Part shown: piece by piece, positions 15,190 through 23,190 of the stretch
How the letters are laid out: the number at the start of each line of letters is the position of its first letter
How positions within the stretch are numbered: position 1 is the first letter of the stretch
Assembly (NCBI GenBank): GCA_025358925.1
Contig: JANYHT010000062.1
Span: forward strand, 62,001 to 126,000
DNA: 64,000 nucleotides
Source: Gemmatimonadaceae bacterium
GTDB lineage: Bacteria; Gemmatimonadota; Gemmatimonadetes; Gemmatimonadales; Gemmatimonadaceae
Direction: 5' to 3'
The notes under the pieces: model-generated
Database searches by the model: none
What the model was told of the DNA's origin: nothing
Seen by the model: only the letters and a program-made list of their open reading frames with translations
Made by a program: the position numbers and the translations under genes

Positions 15190-16128
15190 ATGACTTCGCA
15201 CTCGCCCACGCACACGGTCACCATTGGGCTCGTTCAAGAGACGGCCTCTGACAATCTCGCTGACAACGTCGCACGCGCCATGGTGCGCGTTCGTGAGGCC
15301 GCATCACGCGGCGCGCAGATTATATGCCTACAAGAGCTCTTCAACGCGCCCTATTTCTGCAAAATTATTCGCACTGATCGCTTCGATATCGCCGAGCCAC
15401 TGGACGGTCCAACGGTGAGCACGATGCAGTCGCTCGCCAAAGAATTGGGTGTTGTACTGGTTGTCCCGTTTTACGAAAAGCAAACAGCCGGGCTCTATCG
15501 CAATTCTGCGACGGTGATTGATGCGGACGGTGCTGTGCTTGGCACGTATCGCAAGATGCATATCCCGCACGATCCGCTCTTCGAGGAGAAGTACTATTTC
15601 GCGCCTGGCGACGTCGGACCGGATTTGCGTGGTGATCAACATCCGGGCATCAGTGGTTTCCGCGTGTGGCGCACAAAGTTTGCTGACATCGGCGTTCTAA
15701 TCTGCTGGGATCAATGGTACCCAGAGGCCGCGCGCATTACGTCGTTACTTGGCGCGCAGATTCTTTTTTATCCGACCGCCATCGGATGGCATCCCGCGGA
15801 AAAGGCGACGTTTGGTGACGCACAGCTCGACGCGTGGCGCACAGCGCAACGCGCGCATGCCATCGCGAACGGTGTGTTTGTTGCGGCACCAAATCGCGTG
15901 GGCTTCGAGCCAGAACCTGGTACGGAGGGCATTGAGTTTTTCGGACATTCGTTTGTGTGTGATCCGTTTGGTCGATATCTCGCGCAAGCGTCCACCGAGC
16001 CGATGGTGCTCATCGCCGCGTGCGATTTAGAACTGATCGAAGACACGCGTCGGAATTGGCCATTTCTGCGCGATCGTCGGGTTGATGCGTATGGTCCGAT
16101 CACGCAGCGTTGGTTGGCGGAGCGCTAG
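15190..16128 (+). CDS. aguB: N-carbamoylputrescine amidase
   Basis: 312 residues. It hydrolyses N-carbamoylputrescine to putrescine, CO2 and ammonia, the last step of the agmatine route. This is a nitrilase-superfamily protein with an intact catalytic triad: E49 (CLQELFNAPYF), K122 (YRKMHIPHDP) and C172 (VLICWDQWYPEAAR). The segments EEKYYFAPGD and WRTAQRAHAIANG are characteristic of AguB rather than other nitrilases. The identity is supported by the adjacent aguA, which supplies its substrate. Only two bases separate its stop from the aguA GTG. Confidence 0.95.
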   Translation: MTSHSPTHTVTIGLVQETASDNLADNVARAMVRVREAASRGAQIICLQELFNAPYFCKIIRTDRFDIAEPLDGPTVSTMQSLAKELGVVLVVPFYEKQTAGLYRNSATVIDADGAVLGTYRKMHIPHDPLFEEKYYFAPGDVGPDLRGDQHPGISGFRVWRTKFADIGVLICWDQWYPEAARITSLLGAQILFYPTAIGWHPAEKATFGDAQLDAWRTAQRAHAIANGVFVAAPNRVGFEPEPGTEGIEFFGHSFVCDPFGRYLAQASTEPMVLIAACDLELIEDTRRNWPFLRDRRVDAYGPITQRWLAER

Positions 16129-16130
16129 TC

Positions 16131-17195
16131 GTGGCCGCAACATATTGCATGCCGGCCGAGTGGTCACGACACGATGCAACGTGGATTGCATGGCCGCATC
16201 ATGAACCCGACTGGCCCGGAAAACTGGAGCCCATTCCTTGGGTGTACGCCGAAATTGTTCGAGCGCTTGCGCCGTATGAGCGTGTAGACATTCTCTGTCA
16301 CAATGAACACGTGCGGGACGACGCGCAGCGTGCGCTCGACCTGCATCACGTAGCACGCGAATGCTATCGGCTGCATCTGCAACCGACCGATCGCGTGTGG
16401 CTGCGCGACTCGGGTCCCACCGGTGTGCATGACGTGCACGGCAACGTTTCGTTCGTGCGCTGGGACTTTAATGCGTGGGCCAAGTACGAAAATTTCACGC
16501 GTGACGTACAAGTGCCGCTCGCCATCTCGGCAATCACGGGTCTCGTGGCGCGTGATGCCGTTCGTCCGGACAGTGGGGCGGCACTTGTGCTTGAAGGTGG
16601 GGGTATTGAAACGGACGGTATGGGTACGATGCTCGTTACGGAAGAGTGGCTGCTGTCGGACGTACAGGTGCGTAATCCTGGACTGGACCGCGCGGGGTAT
16701 GAGCGCGCGTTTGCTGAGTACTTGGGCATCACGAAAACTATTTGGCTGGGTGAGGGCTGTGTCGGCGACGATACGCACGGACATGTCGACGATATTGCGC
16801 GGTTCGTCGCACCGGGGGTCGTTGTGCTCGCGCATGAGGTCGATCCCGTCGACGACAACCATCGTCGTTCGCTCGACAATCTGGAGCGCCTTCGCTGTGC
16901 AACTGATGCGCGCGGTCACGCGTTACAGGTAGTAACGTTGCCGTATCCGCGTGCGGTGATCATGGACGGTGCGCGCCTGCCGGCGAGTTACGCCAACTTT
17001 TATATCGCGAATGGGGTGGTGCTCGTGCCAACATTTAACGACGCGAATGATCGCATCGCGCTGAACGCGTTGGCCACCGTGTTCCCAACGCACGCGGTGG
17101 TTGGCATTCACGCGGTGGATCTCGTGTGGGGTCTTGGTACGTTGCATTGTCTGACCCAACAGCAACCGTCCGCCCTGCACCGCGAGCTCGTGTGA
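16131..17195 (+). CDS. aguA: Agmatine deiminase
   Basis: 354 residues, the family length. It converts agmatine to N-carbamoylputrescine and ammonia. Features are MPAEWSRHDATWIAWPH, VWLRDSGPTGV, the acidic/glycine segment LVLEGGGIETDG, DDTHGHVDDIARF with the catalytic His, and C340 in LGTLHCLTQQQP. I chose GTG 16131, which has a GGAG Shine-Dalgarno at 16119-16122; ATG 16149 would begin exactly at MPAEW, where the homologous core starts, and is the alternative. With aguB it makes putrescine from arginine-derived agmatine. Its stop overlaps the start of the DUF2628 gene (GTGTGA). Confidence 0.95.
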   Translation: MAATYCMPAEWSRHDATWIAWPHHEPDWPGKLEPIPWVYAEIVRALAPYERVDILCHNEHVRDDAQRALDLHHVARECYRLHLQPTDRVWLRDSGPTGVHDVHGNVSFVRWDFNAWAKYENFTRDVQVPLAISAITGLVARDAVRPDSGAALVLEGGGIETDGMGTMLVTEEWLLSDVQVRNPGLDRAGYERAFAEYLGITKTIWLGEGCVGDDTHGHVDDIARFVAPGVVVLAHEVDPVDDNHRRSLDNLERLRCATDARGHALQVVTLPYPRAVIMDGARLPASYANFYIANGVVLVPTFNDANDRIALNALATVFPTHAVVGIHAVDLVWGLGTLHCLTQQQPSALHRELV

Positions 17196-17797
17196 CTATT
17201 CCTCCGCAGCACGACGGTGAGCCGGGCCTACCCGACGGCAATGATCCCAAGGGCAATTTGCCGGCGTGGGCGACGAGAAACATCGCTGGCAGCGAGCTGT
17301 CCGACGTGTCGTTAGCGGCCTTTATCGGGCCGCGCTGGGAGCGTTCCTATCGCAAGAAGTTTGCGACGTTTCGCGCCGATGCGTCGTTTGTGCCAACGTG
17401 GAACTGGAGCGCGGCACTGGGTATGCCCTTTTGGTTTCTTTATCGAAAGCTCTACCTCGCATTCGGCGTATTTTTTGTCTTGCCTGGCGTCGCGTTTCGC
17501 TGGCTCACGGGTACTGAAACGGTGTTGACGTTGCAAAACGTGCAGCTTCCAGAGAATCAGTCGCTGCTGGTCATGAATTTCGCGATTTTTGCTTCCGCTC
17601 TAATTGCCGCAGGTGGCACCGGCAATTGGTTGTTGTTTCGGCGCGCGCGTGCCGCCACGAAGTTGGCCCAATTGCAGCGGCTGCCCGATGCGGACGCACA
17701 GGTATGGTTGGCGCGTATTGGCGGGGTCAATCGCGGTGGAACGCTGCTCTTTTGTGTGCTTTCGCTGATGCTGGCGGTGGCGCAAGTGGGGGCGTGA
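17192..17797 (+). CDS. DUF2628-type small membrane protein
   Basis: 201 residues. An N-terminal soluble part (RWERSYRKKFATFRADASFV) is followed by SWNW-like FVPTWNWSAALGMPFWFLYR and then by two to three membrane helices (LYLAFGVFFVLPGVAF, LLVMNFAIFASALIAAGG, GTLLFCVLSLMLAVAQ). The combination of a WNW motif with F-W-F-L-Y-R is characteristic of DUF2628. Function is unknown. GTG 17192 overlaps the aguA stop, so translation is coupled to the polyamine genes; a link to putrescine handling is possible but unproven. Confidence 0.8.
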   Translation: MTIPPQHDGEPGLPDGNDPKGNLPAWATRNIAGSELSDVSLAAFIGPRWERSYRKKFATFRADASFVPTWNWSAALGMPFWFLYRKLYLAFGVFFVLPGVAFRWLTGTETVLTLQNVQLPENQSLLVMNFAIFASALIAAGGTGNWLLFRRARAATKLAQLQRLPDADAQVWLARIGGVNRGGTLLFCVLSLMLAVAQVGA

Positions 17798-17842: not shown

Positions 17843-17895
17843 GATTCATTCGGTTTCGCAAGTGACGCGAATTGTGTGGGCGGTGTTGTTCAGCG

Positions 17896-18432
17896 ATGAC
17901 TGACGCGGAGTTGGTGGCGAGGACCCGCGCTGGAGATGCCGATGCGTTCGGAGCGCTCGTTGCGCGTTACTACGACGCGTGTTGGCGGTTCGCGTATCAC
18001 ATGCTGGGAGAACGAGCAGATGCGGAAGACGTCGTTCAAGACAGTTTTTTGCGCGCGTATCTGGCGATTCGTCGCTACGACGAACGTGATCAGTTTCGCG
18101 GTTGGTTGTTCCGCATTCTGACCAACCAATGTCGCAACTTTATTACGGCACGGGGTCGTCGCACGCGGCGGTTTGTGCAAGATGACGTGGCAATTCAGAG
18201 CGCCGCGACTCCCACAATCGGCATGCAGCTTGGTGTCGAAGATGCGGTGCTCGCGCGCGCAATGGCGCAGCTTGATCCGCTGCAGCGCGAAGCGTTGTTG
18301 CTCAAATATGCTGAGGGGTTGGAGTACACCGAGATGTCCAAGATGACCGGCGTTGGAGAGTCTGCACTGAAGATGCGCGTGAAGCGCGGCGGCGAGCGGC
18401 TGCGCGCCATTCTGGCCTCGTTTGATGTCTGA
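17896..18432 (+). CDS. ECF-type RNA polymerase sigma factor
   Basis: 178 residues. Region 2 is clear (DADAFGALVARYYDACWRFA, then ADAEDVVQDSFLRAYLAI, and the -10-recognising FRGWLFRILTNQCRNF). Region 4 is AQLDPLQREALLLKYAEGLE followed by YTEMSKMTGVGESALKMRVK. There is no extra C-terminal domain. ATG 17896 follows region-2 spacing of the family better than the upstream in-frame codon. It overlaps by eight bases the next gene, a membrane protein with an extracytoplasmic CBM48, which is where an anti-sigma factor is normally encoded. Confidence 0.95.
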   Translation: MTDAELVARTRAGDADAFGALVARYYDACWRFAYHMLGERADAEDVVQDSFLRAYLAIRRYDERDQFRGWLFRILTNQCRNFITARGRRTRRFVQDDVAIQSAATPTIGMQLGVEDAVLARAMAQLDPLQREALLLKYAEGLEYTEMSKMTGVGESALKMRVKRGGERLRAILASFDV

Positions 18433-19000
18433 GCGAGACGGCGTGCTGCCATTCCCTTCGGCCGATGATGACGCGCTCGTTGCCGCGCGTCTAGCGTCGT
18501 TGTACGTCAACACGCGACCGGTTGAGCACGCGCAAATTGAGCGTTGCGCGCGCGCCGTATTGCTCGAGGCGTCGCAGCAATCGCCACGGAGTTGGCTGGC
18601 TGGGGTACGTTACTCACGCTGGATGTGGAGTGTAGCCGCAGCGGCAGTGCTGATTGTTGTCACCTTGCGCGGACGACCGACAACGCTGCTCGAGCCGCAG
18701 GGAGCGGTCACACGCGTTGATGACGGCCAAGCCATTCGCTTCGATCTTCGACTTCCCGCGCGCGCCAAGGCAGTGGCCATTGTGGGCGACTTCAACGGAT
18801 GGGACGAGCGCAAGACACCGATGCTCAAACGCAGCGCCGACGGTACGTGGTCCGCGCGCGTCGCGCTGCTGCCCGGTCGTCATGTCTACGCGTTCGTAGT
18901 CGACGGAGACCGGTGGCTGGTCGATCCGCTTGCGCCGCAAGTGCCCGACTCTGGCTATGGTCCGACCAATGCGTTGGTCGTTGAAGGAGCAACGCGATGA
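18425..19000 (+). CDS. Single-pass membrane protein with extracytoplasmic CBM48-type domain, putative anti-sigma factor
   Basis: 191 residues. Residues 1-65 are cytoplasmic and helical without a zinc-binding anti-sigma motif. One membrane helix lies at about 66-81 (WMWSVAAAAVLIVVTL). Residues about 103-190 are a CBM48/isoamylase-N-like beta-sandwich (VAIVGDFNGWDERKTPMLKR, WSARVALLPGRHVYAFVVDG, WLVDPLAPQ), which in known proteins binds alpha-glucans or glycogen. Position directly after the sigma gene with overlapping frames suggests it controls the sigma factor, possibly by sensing a glycan. That role is inferred; the domain itself is clear. Confidence 0.85.
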   Translation: MSERDGVLPFPSADDDALVAARLASLYVNTRPVEHAQIERCARAVLLEASQQSPRSWLAGVRYSRWMWSVAAAAVLIVVTLRGRPTTLLEPQGAVTRVDDGQAIRFDLRLPARAKAVAIVGDFNGWDERKTPMLKRSADGTWSARVALLPGRHVYAFVVDGDRWLVDPLAPQVPDSGYGPTNALVVEGATR

Positions 19001-19671
19001 ATCCGATTGTGTTCACCGTGTTGCTGTCTTTGCATTCCATCGCCGCCGCGTCACGGGACACAATTCCGCGCGAAGGATTTCAGCAAATTCAGTTCGACGC
19101 GTCGCGCTTCGACAGCGTCACGGCGTTTGCGTTGCGGAACTTGCTGGATAACGCGGCCGGGCGTGGCCTGCCCACTGGTCCGCTCGTCAGTCGCGCGTTA
19201 GAAGGTGCCGCACGTCGTGCGAGTAGTGACCACATTTTGAAAGTGGTGCGAGATCATGCCGCCGCGCTCGCTGAGGCGCGCGACGCGCTCGGCGTCGAAT
19301 CTCGCGTGAACGAACTCGACGCGGGTGCGACGGCGATTCGGTCGGGCATTCCCCGCGCCGCGCTTCGCGCGATTCGTGCGTCGCGACCCGTCGGCTCCGT
19401 GGAGATGCCGCTCACAGTGCTGACGGATATCGTGCAGCGCGGAGTGCCGAACACAACCGCACAAGACGCCGTCACATCGATTTCGCGATTGCCCGGCTCC
19501 GATGAAGCGTTGCAAGGATTGCAGATCACGGTTGCAAAGAATGCCATTCGCGGCCCGGGTATGGCCGTCGACGCGCTAAATCGCTACCTTCGTGGTACGG
19601 TTCAAGGAATTGCGTCTCCGTCCACTCCCGCGACGGGAGACCGCAAGCCGATCCGACCACCAGCTCCGTGA
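18997..19671 (+). CDS. Exported helical protein of unknown function
   Basis: 224 residues. A short signal peptide (MNPIVFTVLLSLHSIAAA) suggests export to the periplasm. The mature part is Ala-rich and mainly helical, with a segment of conserved look, GRGLPTGPLVSRALEGAA, then LKVVRDHAAALAEARDAL. The C-terminus is Pro-rich. I do not recognise the family. The start overlaps the CBM48 gene stop (ATGA) and its stop overlaps the next start (GTGA), so it belongs to the ECF operon and is probably part of the same envelope function. Confidence 0.8.
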   Translation: MNPIVFTVLLSLHSIAAASRDTIPREGFQQIQFDASRFDSVTAFALRNLLDNAAGRGLPTGPLVSRALEGAARRASSDHILKVVRDHAAALAEARDALGVESRVNELDAGATAIRSGIPRAALRAIRASRPVGSVEMPLTVLTDIVQRGVPNTTAQDAVTSISRLPGSDEALQGLQITVAKNAIRGPGMAVDALNRYLRGTVQGIASPSTPATGDRKPIRPPAP

Positions 19672-21110
19672 CGCCCGCCCGTTGCCCCCTTCGCGCGTCG
19701 CACCGCCGCTCATCACCGAGCAGCGGAGAGTGGCGGTTGTGCGCGCTCACGTGGCTCGCGCTTGTCGCCCTGCCGATTGCCAGCGCACCGCTCACTGCAC
19801 AACGTCGCGGCGACTCGCCCATCGCGCCGTCTTCTGTGCTCGGCCCCGCAACAGATTCGCCGACGCTGTCCGTGCTCGGACTCGCTGCACTCCCCGATGG
19901 CAGCGGCAACGCCCTTTCCAATCGCAACGAAATTTGGATGGGTGCAACACAGCCTCTTCTGAAACTCGGCAACGTGCGCTTGTCCGCCATCGGGAGCGGC
20001 AACTGGCAAGCGCGCGATGCCGTTGGCACCACGTCGTCCATCGAAGGATTGCTTTCGCTCCGTGCTCGTGCACGTTTTGGCGAAACGCACGTATGGAGCG
20101 CCGCAAGTTACGGTCGCGCCGATTTGAGTACTGACGCGGGCGCGCAGATAAGTGGCATTCGCAACACACTAATTCCCCCTGGGTTTGGTGCGAGTGTGCT
20201 GGCCGACACTACAGTGTCACGCCGATTCGATGTTGGAAATCTCGGTCGTGTTGAAGCTGGATTTCTCACGAACGTTTCCAGCGTCGAACTGTCGTTTGGT
20301 ATGTCAATCGAGCGCGCAACGCGCGTGACCACGCAAACACTCACCATCAACGAGGCCACCGGATCGATTCCGATGGCCTCCGCCGAACGTGTGCAGGCAG
20401 TGCGCACGCTGCGTTCAACGCAACAGCGCGACATCGCGTCGAGCATTGCGTCGATGGGTTTCAATACTGGCACAACCCAGTGGCTCATTTCGCTCACCGC
20501 GCCAGTTGCCACGTGGGTGTCCGCCGATGCCCTTGGGGTTAAGCCAAAAGTACCGCCAGCGATCGCCTCACTCGCCATCGCGCATCCCATCGCCGCTTGG
20601 CTGTCCGTAGTCGGCGCCGCGAGCACCAACTCGTCGTCCGTCGGTTCGATAGCACTACGTGATGAGATCGGAGACGCGCGCTATCATCGGTTTGCGCCAA
20701 TCGTTGCGCTTGGACTGCGATTCACGCAGTTGCCATTTCGTGGACGCCCGGACGATACGCCGCGTGGCATTTTGTCATTCGAAACGCGTACCATCGGTGC
20801 GGTTGATTCAGCAACGGTTGAGCAGGGCGCGCCGCTGGCTGACGGTGACACGTTGCGCGTGGTCTTACTCATCGATGCGCCACGCGCCGAGTCGGTGGAA
20901 TTAATGGGCGACGTCACGGAATGGACGGTAACACAGCTGACGCGGGCCAAGAATGGCCGCTGGCGTGCCGAACTTAAACTTTCACCCGGTGTGCACCGAC
21001 TGATGGTGCGCGCGGACGGAGGGTCTTGGATTGCCCCACCGGGCTACCCTGTGGGCAACGATGATTACGGTGCACCAGTGGGAATGATCGTCGTGCGCCG
21101 GAAGCCGTAG
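19668..21110 (+). CDS. Exported protein with C-terminal CBM48-type domain
   Basis: 480 residues. An extended signal peptide region (residues about 20-45, ending ASAPLTAQ) precedes a long beta-rich central part with alternating polar/hydrophobic strands, possibly an outer-membrane barrel. The last 90 residues repeat the CBM48-like pattern of the second gene of the operon: VELMGDVTEWTVTQLTRAKN, WRAELKLSPGVHRLMVRADG, then SWIAPPG. The two CBM48-bearing proteins would sit at opposite faces of the periplasm. GTG 19668 overlaps the previous stop. A strong terminator follows 20 bases after the stop, ending the operon. Confidence 0.8.
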   Translation: MTPARCPLRASHRRSSPSSGEWRLCALTWLALVALPIASAPLTAQRRGDSPIAPSSVLGPATDSPTLSVLGLAALPDGSGNALSNRNEIWMGATQPLLKLGNVRLSAIGSGNWQARDAVGTTSSIEGLLSLRARARFGETHVWSAASYGRADLSTDAGAQISGIRNTLIPPGFGASVLADTTVSRRFDVGNLGRVEAGFLTNVSSVELSFGMSIERATRVTTQTLTINEATGSIPMASAERVQAVRTLRSTQQRDIASSIASMGFNTGTTQWLISLTAPVATWVSADALGVKPKVPPAIASLAIAHPIAAWLSVVGAASTNSSSVGSIALRDEIGDARYHRFAPIVALGLRFTQLPFRGRPDDTPRGILSFETRTIGAVDSATVEQGAPLADGDTLRVVLLIDAPRAESVELMGDVTEWTVTQLTRAKNGRWRAELKLSPGVHRLMVRADGGSWIAPPGYPVGNDDYGAPVGMIVVRRKP

Positions 21111-21129: not shown

Positions 21130-21170
21130 AAAAACAGCAGATCGCGTGATTCGCGATCTGCTGTTTTTTT
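21130..21170 (+). terminator. Intrinsic terminator of the ECF operon
   Basis: A 17-bp perfect stem (21130-21146 with 21152-21168), core CAGCAGATCGCG paired with CGCGATCTGCTG, and a five-base loop TGATT. The stem runs into seven T residues. Stem, loop and T-run are textbook for rho-independent termination on the plus strand; the A-run on the other side could let it also work for the minus strand. Confidence 0.92.
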
Positions 21171-21324
21171 GGGACTTCCGGGAATTTCGGGAGAGACGTC
21201 GACCGAACAGCAACGGGTGACCGCGAATAGCGCGCTGGATCGCGGTCATCTGGAAATCGCATTTTTAGCGCACCGTGCCTATTCGCGCGGCATTCCCGGG
21301 GGAATTCCGGATGGACTTTTTTTG

Positions 21325-23109
21325 TTACCGATCACCCTTTATGCGAATGATCTGACTCGTGCTATCCGTGATGCCCGCGCCCGACACCAAGATGGTCAAC
21401 TGATATTCGCCGGCTGATACGGGCGGGAAGTTGAGCGTGAGACTACGACCGGGTGCACCGTCCGGGCGTCCGTTGTCCGCGTAGCGAATGGAGACAGGCG
21501 TGACCGACTTGGACAGACCAATCGAGCTTCCAAGTTTTTGAAAGAAGCTCGCGCCGACTCGCGTCGCGCGCACAGACACTTGCAGCGGCGCGCTGGGCGT
21601 GGCGTTGCGATACATCTCCCAGTACAAACCGATGGTCGCGCCGCGCTCAATCTCGAGTGATCCATACGCCTGTATCGCGTTTTTCTCAAGCGACGGCGTT
21701 GCGCCGGCATCACCGCGCTGTAACAGCAAATAATCCGAGAGTCGCGCGTCCTTCGGTAGCGGTTGCACGGTGCTGCGCGCGCGCGTCACGCGACGGCCCG
21801 CAGGTGCGAGCACTTCAACGCTTGCCAACATCGGCGCCGTGCCCATCAGCGCGAGCAGCGCGCCGTTGGCACCCGCGCTATCGCGCTTCGCAATAATCGG
21901 CGCGCGTCCGTCCATTGCATCGAGCACCAGCGCTGCTGTGTACGGTCCTTTGCCCATCTCCAAGTCACGAATAAGGCGGAAGGCACCGGCGAGGAGCGTG
22001 GTGTCGCCACGACGAAAGCGGGCGAATTGATGTGGTACGGTGATGAAGCCCGAGGCGTACCGCGGTGAATAGCGCATCCGCGCTTTCTTGCGAAACAAAT
22101 CCCAATCCTTTTCGACCGCGCCCACCGGTGTGGTAAAGACTTTCGCAACAGGCATGAAATCGTAGCTGGGCGTTGGTTCGTGACCAATCACGCTCGGCGG
22201 ACGCGGATCAGCGACGCCGCCGTTTTGCACCGACCACTGCACCGGCCAACCGAAACGCATTTGCGATTCCAGGAGGTCGTCGCCCCACTGAATATCATAC
22301 GGAATGCGACCAAGCGAATGAATACGCGACATCGTGCGGCGCGCGTAGACTTCGTTCCGGAGATCGTTGGCCGGCAACATCCATAACGGCTGTGCAAGCC
22401 GCAAAATGCGCGTGTTCTCCGCGTCGCGATTCGCACACGGAATAGCGTTGTAAGCGTTGTGCGATGGAATCTCGAGCCACAGGGTGAGATCCGTCCAATT
22501 GCATCGTTGCTGCACGGGCATTGCGGCGAGCGCTCTCGTGAACGCTGCGGTCGCGTCCACGTGGCGATTGGCATTGTGCAACGCCAATCCTTCAATCGCA
22601 TCGCACCACCAGCCCGTGCCCTTGCATGCGCGTGCCGCTGCAACGGACACATCGAGCTTCTCGGCTTCGATCGCGTATCGCACACGCATCGCGCTCACCC
22701 AATCGTCCGTTGGATCTGCGGCTTGCGCCTGTCCCAGCAGATCAAGCAATTGCTCGCGTTCGATGCGCGCGTCATTGCGTTCGGCCGGCGGTGGGACATC
22801 GCCGTTGTTATTCCAGTAGCAGATGCGACCCATCGGCACTTCACATGTGGCGTCGGCACCGCCGTTGTAGAAGCGCAGCCCCTGTCGATGATTCCGTTCG
22901 AACGAGTCTTGGAGCGAACGCGCTTGCGAGGACAGCGCCGCCTGCGCTTTGCCGAGCGTGCGCAGCGGGTCGCTGGCGAGGATTTGCGCGGCGCGTGCGA
23001 GCGAGTCGGCGTTGAGCGGGCCACTTTGCTGCGCGGCAAGCAGCGCGGGCATGACCGCCGACGCGAAGACAACAAGACGAGCAATTGCAGCGAGCCGTGG
23101 GGTCCGCAT
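21325..23109 (-). CDS. Large exported protein of unknown function with helical-repeat region
   Basis: 594 residues with a signal peptide (MRTPRLAAIARLVVFASAVM then PALLAAQ). The N-terminal half contains TPR-like helical pairs (for example GLALHNANRHVDATAAFTRA) and cysteine-containing segments such as ATCEVPMGRICYWNNNGDVP, hinting at disulfides. The C-terminal third is beta-rich and ends with a sandwich-like stretch (LTLNFPPVSAGEYQLTILVS). I do not recognise a family. ATG 23109 has GGAGAG about ten bases upstream, which decides it over the in-frame codon 27 bases earlier. It is followed, after transcription through 82 bases, by nothing else on this strand; the gene upstream (210-residue barrel) is likely in the same unit. 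Confidence 0.8.
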   Translation of the reverse strand: MRTPRLAAIARLVVFASAVMPALLAAQQSGPLNADSLARAAQILASDPLRTLGKAQAALSSQARSLQDSFERNHRQGLRFYNGGADATCEVPMGRICYWNNNGDVPPPAERNDARIEREQLLDLLGQAQAADPTDDWVSAMRVRYAIEAEKLDVSVAAARACKGTGWWCDAIEGLALHNANRHVDATAAFTRALAAMPVQQRCNWTDLTLWLEIPSHNAYNAIPCANRDAENTRILRLAQPLWMLPANDLRNEVYARRTMSRIHSLGRIPYDIQWGDDLLESQMRFGWPVQWSVQNGGVADPRPPSVIGHEPTPSYDFMPVAKVFTTPVGAVEKDWDLFRKKARMRYSPRYASGFITVPHQFARFRRGDTTLLAGAFRLIRDLEMGKGPYTAALVLDAMDGRAPIIAKRDSAGANGALLALMGTAPMLASVEVLAPAGRRVTRARSTVQPLPKDARLSDYLLLQRGDAGATPSLEKNAIQAYGSLEIERGATIGLYWEMYRNATPSAPLQVSVRATRVGASFFQKLGSSIGLSKSVTPVSIRYADNGRPDGAPGRSLTLNFPPVSAGEYQLTILVSGAGITDSTSQIIRIKGDR

Positions 23110-23190
23110 TTGATGACTCTCCGGAGAAAACAACACCGCGCCGCGACGGACAAATGCCCGCGCGGCGCGTGGAAGATGAACGCTTCCGCA

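What the first reader, a model, noticed from the sequence alone, without database searches (positions are those of the whole stretch)
17896..21110. Four-gene ECF sigma / CBM48 operon: a possible glycan-sensing signal path across the envelope
An ECF sigma factor overlaps by eight bases a single-pass protein with a short cytoplasmic part and an extracytoplasmic CBM48-like domain. An exported protein and an exported, possibly barrel-forming protein with a second CBM48-like domain follow. All four have overlapping frames and a strong terminator closes the set. Anti-sigma factors are normally encoded right after the sigma gene, but this one shows no zinc-type anti-sigma motif and carries a carbohydrate-binding fold outside instead. 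CBM48 is known from intracellular glycogen enzymes, so two envelope copies suggest sensing of a glucan or a repurposed fold.
Basis: partly seen in the sequence, partly recalled or inferred. Interest (0 to 1): 0.75.

Follow-up and report, generated by a model that had tools for sequence, protein, structure and literature searches.

The report
Sigma-factor operon with glycogen-type sensor domains
A soil-bacterium operon, conserved across a whole phylum, pairs a gene-switching sigma factor with a membrane protein that most likely holds it inactive and carries a glycogen-binding-type sensor outside; a helical exported protein and an outer-membrane-type protein with a second such sensor complete a probable signalling path across the cell envelope that nobody seems to have described.

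Summary
The four-gene operon is real at the stated coordinates: ECF sigma, single-pass CBM48 protein, exported helical protein, exported protein with a C-terminal CBM48. It is not a local oddity. I collected 156 sigma/CBM48 pairs; 151 also keep the third gene. The CBM48 protein has relatives in 202 of 298 Gemmatimonadota genomes; complete or partial operons occur in other phyla too. The short cytoplasmic part of protein 2 is best read as a shortened, zinc-less anti-sigma domain: it links to longer zinc-less forms (hhalign 96.5%), and those link weakly to zinc anti-sigma domains (54%; shuffled controls about 1%). Both tryptophans that hold glucan in AMPK are kept in both CBM48 families. The sigma gene lies behind a conserved ECF-type promoter that abuts the start codon, so autoregulation and a leaderless message are likely. 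In relatives the same element stands before lipoproteins, outer-membrane-type proteins and a TonB receptor, so the output looks like envelope proteins, not glycogen metabolism. Ligand, sigma binding and barrel are unproven: covariation was inconclusive and the barrel model poor. Closest known principle: clostridial RsgI/SigI. New variant of a known kind.

The parts
17862..17888 (+). ECF-type promoter element GTGACG-N16-TGTTG, ending 7 nt before the sigma start codon; predicted start of transcription at or next to the ATG
   Evidence: Conserved in 19 of 20 aligned Gemmatimonas operons. The pattern with an ATG 5-9 nt downstream is found in 27 of 30 genomes, mostly before this operon. Related element in the same place across the phylum.
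17896..18432 (+). ECF sigma factor, 178 aa
   Evidence: Sigma70_r2 and r4_2. In the tree it falls in a 45-member clade (support 0.95) holding the sampled Gemmatimonadota and Eisenbacteria CBM48-operon sigmas and only two other sigmas of this genome.
18425..19000 (+). Single-pass membrane protein, 191 aa, probable anti-sigma factor with CBM48 sensor (TTG alternative start at 18422)
18464..18574 (+). Cytoplasmic part, residues about 14-50: shortened zinc-less anti-sigma domain, motif LxxRVxxxLRxPVxLDxxLDxRVMAAVR in the family
   Evidence: hhalign: short type vs long type 96.5%, E 9e-10 (shuffled columns at most 0.4%); long type vs zinc anti-sigma domains 54%, E 1.3e-4 (controls at most 1.2%); short type vs zinc domains directly not detectable.
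18620..18667 (+). Transmembrane segment WMWSVAAAAVLIVVTL
   Evidence: Hydrophobic stretch read from the sequence; conserved column block in A1.
18728..18988 (+). Extracytoplasmic CBM48 / AMPK-type glycogen-binding domain
   Evidence: PF16561 2.1e-9, PF02922 7.6e-9; PDB matches to AMPK beta-2 CBM 5e-6; W126 (AMPK W100) in 100%, W164 (W133) in 92%, N182 (N150) in 68% of 156 family members, K126 position is Ala in 69%.
18997..19671 (+). Exported all-helical solenoid protein, 224 aa, low-complexity C-terminal tail
   Evidence: Present in 151 of 156 operons; AlphaFold2 pLDDT 88, nine helices over residues 40-206; PDB matches mainly to designed helical repeats, E 0.1 or worse, Z up to 10.5.
19668..21110 (+). 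Exported, probably outer-membrane beta protein with C-terminal CBM48, 480 aa
   Evidence: A3, A4; strands predicted with low confidence (pLDDT 41); Porin_4 in 2 and OMP_b-brl in 1 of 48 family members.
20847..21107 (+). Second CBM48 domain
   Evidence: PF16561 5.5e-5; W419 in 48/48, W454 in 46/48, G441 in 48/48 family members.
21130..21171 (+). Intrinsic terminator: 17-bp stem, U tract
   Evidence: -29.2 kcal/mol, z -7.3, 0 of 200 shuffles as stable.

Best explanation
It is an autoregulated ECF sigma / membrane anti-sigma signalling module. Protein 2 holds the sigma factor at the inner membrane through its short two-helix cytoplasmic part; its periplasmic CBM48 domain is the input. The exported helical protein and the envelope beta protein with a second CBM48 are co-inherited partners that present or relay the signal from the outer side. 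A carbohydrate (alpha-glucan-like, by the conserved residues) or the state of the envelope glycan layer changes protein 2, by proteolysis or conformation, and frees the sigma factor. The sigma factor then transcribes its own operon from a promoter that abuts its start codon and, in relatives, genes for exported lipoproteins, outer-membrane-type proteins and a SusC-type TonB receptor. Shown here: operon, conservation, promoter element, domain identities, conserved Trp pairs. Supported by a linked homology series: anti-sigma identity. Inferred: sigma binding, ligand, relay, barrel, release mechanism. The confidence covers anti-sigma plus sensor; I put a glycan ligand at about 0.5.
For: Sigma directly before the CBM48 protein with 8- or 4-base overlap in 116 of 156 loci, third gene in 151. 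Anti-sigma series; the nearest CBM-less sigma of the same genome (L467) is followed by a single-pass protein with a WLDGDL...PAHVSAQIM segment and nothing large outside. Dedicated sigma clade. Trp pair kept in both CBM48 families; these residues make AMPK/PTST glucan contacts (PMC9788615, PMC4339375). Promoter conserved in genus and phylum. Targets: TonB receptor with a perfect element 270-493 bp upstream in 12 of 25 Gemmatimonas genomes; in a related family 10 of 13 non-operon sites lie within 75 nt of an exported lipoprotein or outer-membrane-type gene, against 310 of 6000 random positions.
Against: The window protein's cytoplasmic part does not match zinc anti-sigma domains directly (0.4%). 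Covariation with the sigma factor showed no excess in this part over the CBM48 (Neff 102). In AMPK, K126 and Q124 contact glucan; here they are Ala and Val. The TonB-receptor site is absent in the window's own genome. The exported status of targets was judged partly by eye.
Confidence: 0.68

Rival explanations
1. The sigma/anti-sigma pair is real, but the CBM48 domains are protein-protein or structural Ig-like modules that no longer bind sugar; the module monitors envelope assembly, as sigma-E/RseA does.
For: Predicted targets are lipoproteins and outer-membrane-type proteins. CBM48 domains of exported CE1 esterases showed no glycan affinity and clasp each other in a dimer (PMC8040265). Two of the polar AMPK contacts are lost. 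The second pair of this genome (L475) has a CBM-like domain without the W133 equivalent.
Against: Both sugar-stacking Trp positions are near invariant in two separate protein families of the operon, beyond what the fold core alone seems to need.
Confidence: 0.3
2. Protein 2 is not an anti-sigma factor but a CBM48 membrane protein that happens to be co-transcribed; the sigma factor is controlled only by its own promoter or by another partner.
For: Short cytoplasmic part, no direct match to known anti-sigma profiles, uninformative covariation.
Against: Near-invariant order and overlaps over 156 loci; longer relatives carry recognisable LDGEL-type anti-sigma segments and one a zinc motif; no other anti-sigma gene in the operon.
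Confidence: 0.12
3. A FecR/FecA-like surface signalling path: protein 4 is the outer-membrane receptor and passes the signal to protein 2 through CBM48-CBM48 or glycan-bridged contact, with protein 3 as the periplasmic coupler. (This is a specific form of the best explanation.)
For: Two CBM48 domains expected on the two membranes (if protein 4 is a barrel its C-terminus should face the periplasm) plus a constant exported solenoid.
Against: Barrel model of low confidence; no contact tested; second CBM48 protein missing or placed elsewhere in some loci.
Confidence: 0.25

Closest known systems
RsgI / SigI of Clostridium thermocellum
   Same: Membrane anti-sigma factor with an extracytoplasmic carbohydrate-binding module, encoded next to an autoregulated sigma factor (PMC4711584).
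   Different: SigI is not an ECF sigma (different architecture); RsgI modules are CBM3, PA14 or GH10 on a Gram-positive surface; no solenoid or outer-membrane partner. Here CBM48, ECF sigma, diderm envelope.
Class I anti-sigma factors (RseA, RskA, ChrR, RsiW)
   Same: Zinc-less forms are common; the last helix binds sigma2 (PMC7406223); long-type relatives align over the whole domain.
   Different: The window protein keeps only about the last two helices; no direct profile match.
[quoted passage not shown]
   Same: Two helices suffice to contact sigma4 and sigma2 (PMC7406223).
   Different: No sequence link tested; the series points to reduction from a class I type; the outside domain differs.
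AMPK beta / GlgB CBM48 glycogen-binding domains
   Same: Same domain family; both stacking Trp and often the Asn are kept.
   Different: Exported; Lys126 and Gln124 positions changed to Ala/Val; attached to a membrane anti-sigma-like protein.
FecR/FecA/FecI cell-surface signalling
   Same: ECF sigma, inner-membrane regulator, outer-membrane-type partner (general knowledge).
   Different: No TonB receptor in the operon, no FecR domain; sensor is CBM48.

Membership tests
ECF sigma factors | Only sigma2 and sigma4 domains, about 180 aa | tested here: met
   r2 at 21-89, r4_2 at 119-165 of 178 aa; TIGR02937 above cut-off.
Class I anti-sigma domain | Four-helix domain of about 100 aa, with or without Hx3Cx2C | tested here: inconclusive
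   Window protein too short, no direct match (0.4%); linked through long-type relatives (96.5% then 54%).
Class I anti-sigma domain | Zinc motif Hx3Cx2C (optional, not required for class I) | tested here: not met
   Absent in the window protein; present in 1 of 156 family members (L095, whose frame holds an in-frame TAG upstream).
Anti-sigma factor (function) | Binds and inhibits the cognate sigma factor | not testable with these tools
Anti-sigma factor (context) | Encoded directly after the sigma gene, membrane-anchored | tested here: met
   156 loci, overlaps of 8 or 4 bases in 116.
CBM48 / AMPK1_CBM | Profile match | tested here: met
   Protein 2 above both cut-offs; protein 4 just below, but 39 of 48 of its family match PF16561.
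CBM48 / AMPK1_CBM | Trp pair (W100, W133) for glucan stacking | tested here: met
   100% and 92% in the protein 2 family, 48/48 and 46/48 in the protein 4 family.
CBM48 / AMPK1_CBM | Lys126 hydrogen bond | tested here: not met
   Ala in the window protein and in 69% of the family. Not a requirement for family membership.
CBM48 / AMPK1_CBM | Measured glucan binding | not testable with these tools
   Needs a binding assay.
RsgI/SigI | SigI-type sigma and RsgI N-terminal anti-sigma domain | tested here: not met
   The sigma is ECF; no RsgI domain among Pfam hits of protein 2.
Outer-membrane beta-barrel proteins | Signal peptide and barrel of amphipathic strands | tested here: inconclusive
   Signal-like N-terminus; low-confidence all-beta model; weak porin hits in relatives.

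The most novel reading that the evidence does not exclude
A glucan-bridged or CBM48-to-CBM48 relay across the periplasm: an outer-membrane protein and an inner-membrane anti-sigma factor, each with a glycogen-type binding domain and coupled by an exported helical solenoid, report the state of an envelope or extracellular glucan to an ECF sigma factor, in a phylum-wide pathway with its own promoter class and leaderless autoregulation.
Probability: 0.25. Interest if true: 0.82.

Novelty: new variant of a known kind. Interest (0 to 1): 0.64.

Why it matters
It would be the first CBM48-bearing anti-sigma system that I can find (none of the papers searched links CBM48 to ECF anti-sigma factors; the main ECF reclassification paper was not held). 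It is the usual state in a phylum whose signalling is little studied and occurs in several others. It gives a testable promoter, a testable ligand class (alpha-glucans) and a family of exported solenoids with a predicted fold and no name.

Tried and rejected
Covariation between sigma and protein 2 over 155 pairs: the best couplings were not enriched in the cytoplasmic part (8 of top 50, 11.6 expected), so no evidence either way. AlphaFold2 of protein 4 with 19 sequences gave pLDDT 41 and was not searched further. PDB fold search with protein 3 gave mainly designed helical repeats and no family. Standard sigma70 promoter scan found nothing in the region. A simple terminator scan missed the true terminator; folding showed it. 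The strict genus pattern in the window's own genome gave no convincing second target. Distant hits in Pseudomonas and other genera showed only a CBM48-like stretch and were set aside, from general knowledge, as probable GlgB-type modules; not checked. Literature: no paper joins ECF sigma, anti-sigma and CBM48; the ECF reclassification paper is not held.

Full report
The operon runs from an ECF sigma gene at 17896 to 21110, closed by a strong terminator at 21130-21171. The genes overlap by 8, 4 and 4 bases. Protein 2 starts at ATG 18425, with a TTG one codon earlier.

Conservation. Searching relatives with protein 2 found matches in 54 of 61 genomes, often with a second match about 2 kb away in a protein of about 480 aa, which is protein 4. 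A profile of 38 sequences finds the family in 202 of 298 Gemmatimonadota genomes (177 of 256 good ones), often several matches each. I fetched and annotated 156 sigma/CBM48 pairs: the CBM48 gene overlaps the sigma stop by 8 bases in 69 and by 4 in 47; protein 3 follows in 151; a second CBM48 protein is present in most. Outside the phylum the sigma and CBM48 genes, usually with protein 3, occur in Eisenbacteria, Nitrospirota, Salinivenus lutea, a Myxococcales and a deltaproteobacterial genome. The sampled Gemmatimonadota and Eisenbacteria operon sigmas form one clade (support 0.95) that includes only three of this genome's sigma factors: this one, that of a second diverged CBM48 pair (L475), and one whose partner (L467) has an anti-sigma-like segment and no CBM48.

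Is protein 2 an anti-sigma factor? Its cytoplasmic part is about 62 aa with two likely helices and the family motif LxxRVxxxLRxPVxLDxxLDxRVMAAVR. Alone it matches no known domain. Twenty-six relatives carry a longer form with segments such as HPLVKRLLDGELxLAELPPEL, like the start of class I anti-sigma domains. Profile comparison links short to long forms at 96.5% (E 9e-10) and long forms to zinc anti-sigma domains of the same genomes at 54% (E 1.3e-4); column-shuffled controls stay at or under 1.2%. One relative (L095) still has the zinc motif, though an in-frame TAG lies upstream in its frame. The most economical reading is a class I domain that lost zinc and then its first helices. CnrY shows that two helices can suffice (PMC7406223). 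Direct covariation with the sigma factor could not decide this.

Do the CBM48 domains look able to bind glucan? In AMPK, W100 and W133 stack on sugars, K126 and N150 make hydrogen bonds (PMC9788615), and the equivalent Trp pair is needed for starch binding in PTST (PMC4339375). In protein 2 the pair is W126 (100% of 156) and W164 (92%), the Asn is kept in 68%, the Lys is mostly Ala (numbering from ATG 18425). In the protein 4 family the pair is W419 (48/48) and W454 (46/48). This favours a sugar ligand but a different polar pattern. CBM48 domains that bind no tested glycan exist (PMC8040265).

Proteins 3 and 4. Protein 3 is predicted with confidence as a nine-helix solenoid (pLDDT 88) with no clear natural match. 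Protein 4 has a signal-like N-terminus and probably long beta strands before its CBM48; the model is poor (pLDDT 41), but two relatives match Porin_4 and one OMP_b-brl. If it is a barrel, both CBM48 domains should face the periplasm, from the two membranes; this is inference.

Promoter and output. Aligning the region before the sigma gene in 20 Gemmatimonas operons shows GTGACG-N16-TGTTG in 19, ending about 6-9 nt before the ATG. Across the phylum the same place holds TGTGAC-N17-GGGT(A/T) in many operons (the dyad TGAC-N17-GGGT in 23 of 136 non-genus operons, at most 4 for any dyad in shuffles). The spacing implies a transcript that starts at the start codon. In the genus the strict element with ATG is found mostly at this operon; a perfect element also lies 270-493 bp before a SusC-type TonB receptor in 12 of 25 Gemmatimonas genomes, in several sequence contexts, but not in the window's genome. 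In a related family 10 of 13 further sites lie within 75 nt of genes for exported lipoproteins (DUF4382-type in four genomes, DUF6174, Big_2) or outer-membrane-type proteins; for random positions 310 of 6000 do. Exported status of the hits was judged from lipobox or signal-like N-termini, that of the random control by a crude hydrophobicity rule. The predicted output is therefore envelope protein synthesis, which neither proves nor excludes a glycan signal.

Verdict. A conserved, apparently undescribed ECF sigma / CBM48 anti-sigma module, working on the principle of RsgI/SigI (anti-sigma with outside carbohydrate-binding module, PMC4711584) but built from different parts and in a diderm envelope. 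It is not a member of RsgI/SigI. Anti-sigma role likely, glycan ligand about even, trans-envelope relay possible.

Noticed in passing
L475 (G000:C12:80500-88000), reverse strand, ORFs 1598-2227 and 2118-2837 in strand coordinates: Second, diverged sigma/CBM-like pair in the same genome; its CBM domain lacks the W133 equivalent.
   Followed up: partly
L467 (G000:C18 near 34858): Sigma of the same clade followed by a single-pass protein with a zinc-less anti-sigma-like segment (WLDGDL) and no outside domain.
   Followed up: partly
15190-17797: N-carbamoylputrescine amidase-like and agmatine deiminase-like genes (read from sequence, not searched) and a two-TM protein; the last two are conserved next to the operon through the genus.
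   Followed up: no
21325-23136 (-): 603-aa exported protein with no Pfam family, converging on the operon and conserved in the genus.
   Followed up: no
L419, L420, L421: SusC-type receptor and SusD-sized lipoprotein-like gene (no Pfam match) followed by DUF1592/1588/1585 and DUF1552 genes, a Planctomycetes-like set.
   Followed up: partly
L082, L084, L087: Exported-looking proteins with CBM48 domains in UBP1, Eisenbacteria and Cloacimonadota loci, no sigma gene found near.
   Followed up: no
L095:4000-4140: Zinc-type anti-sigma domain fused to CBM48 whose frame holds one in-frame TAG: sequencing error, decay or recoding.
   Followed up: partly
L433, L424, L446, L450: DUF4382-type lipoprotein behind the same promoter type; in L433, L424 and L446 divergent from or next to the sigma operon.
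   Followed up: partly
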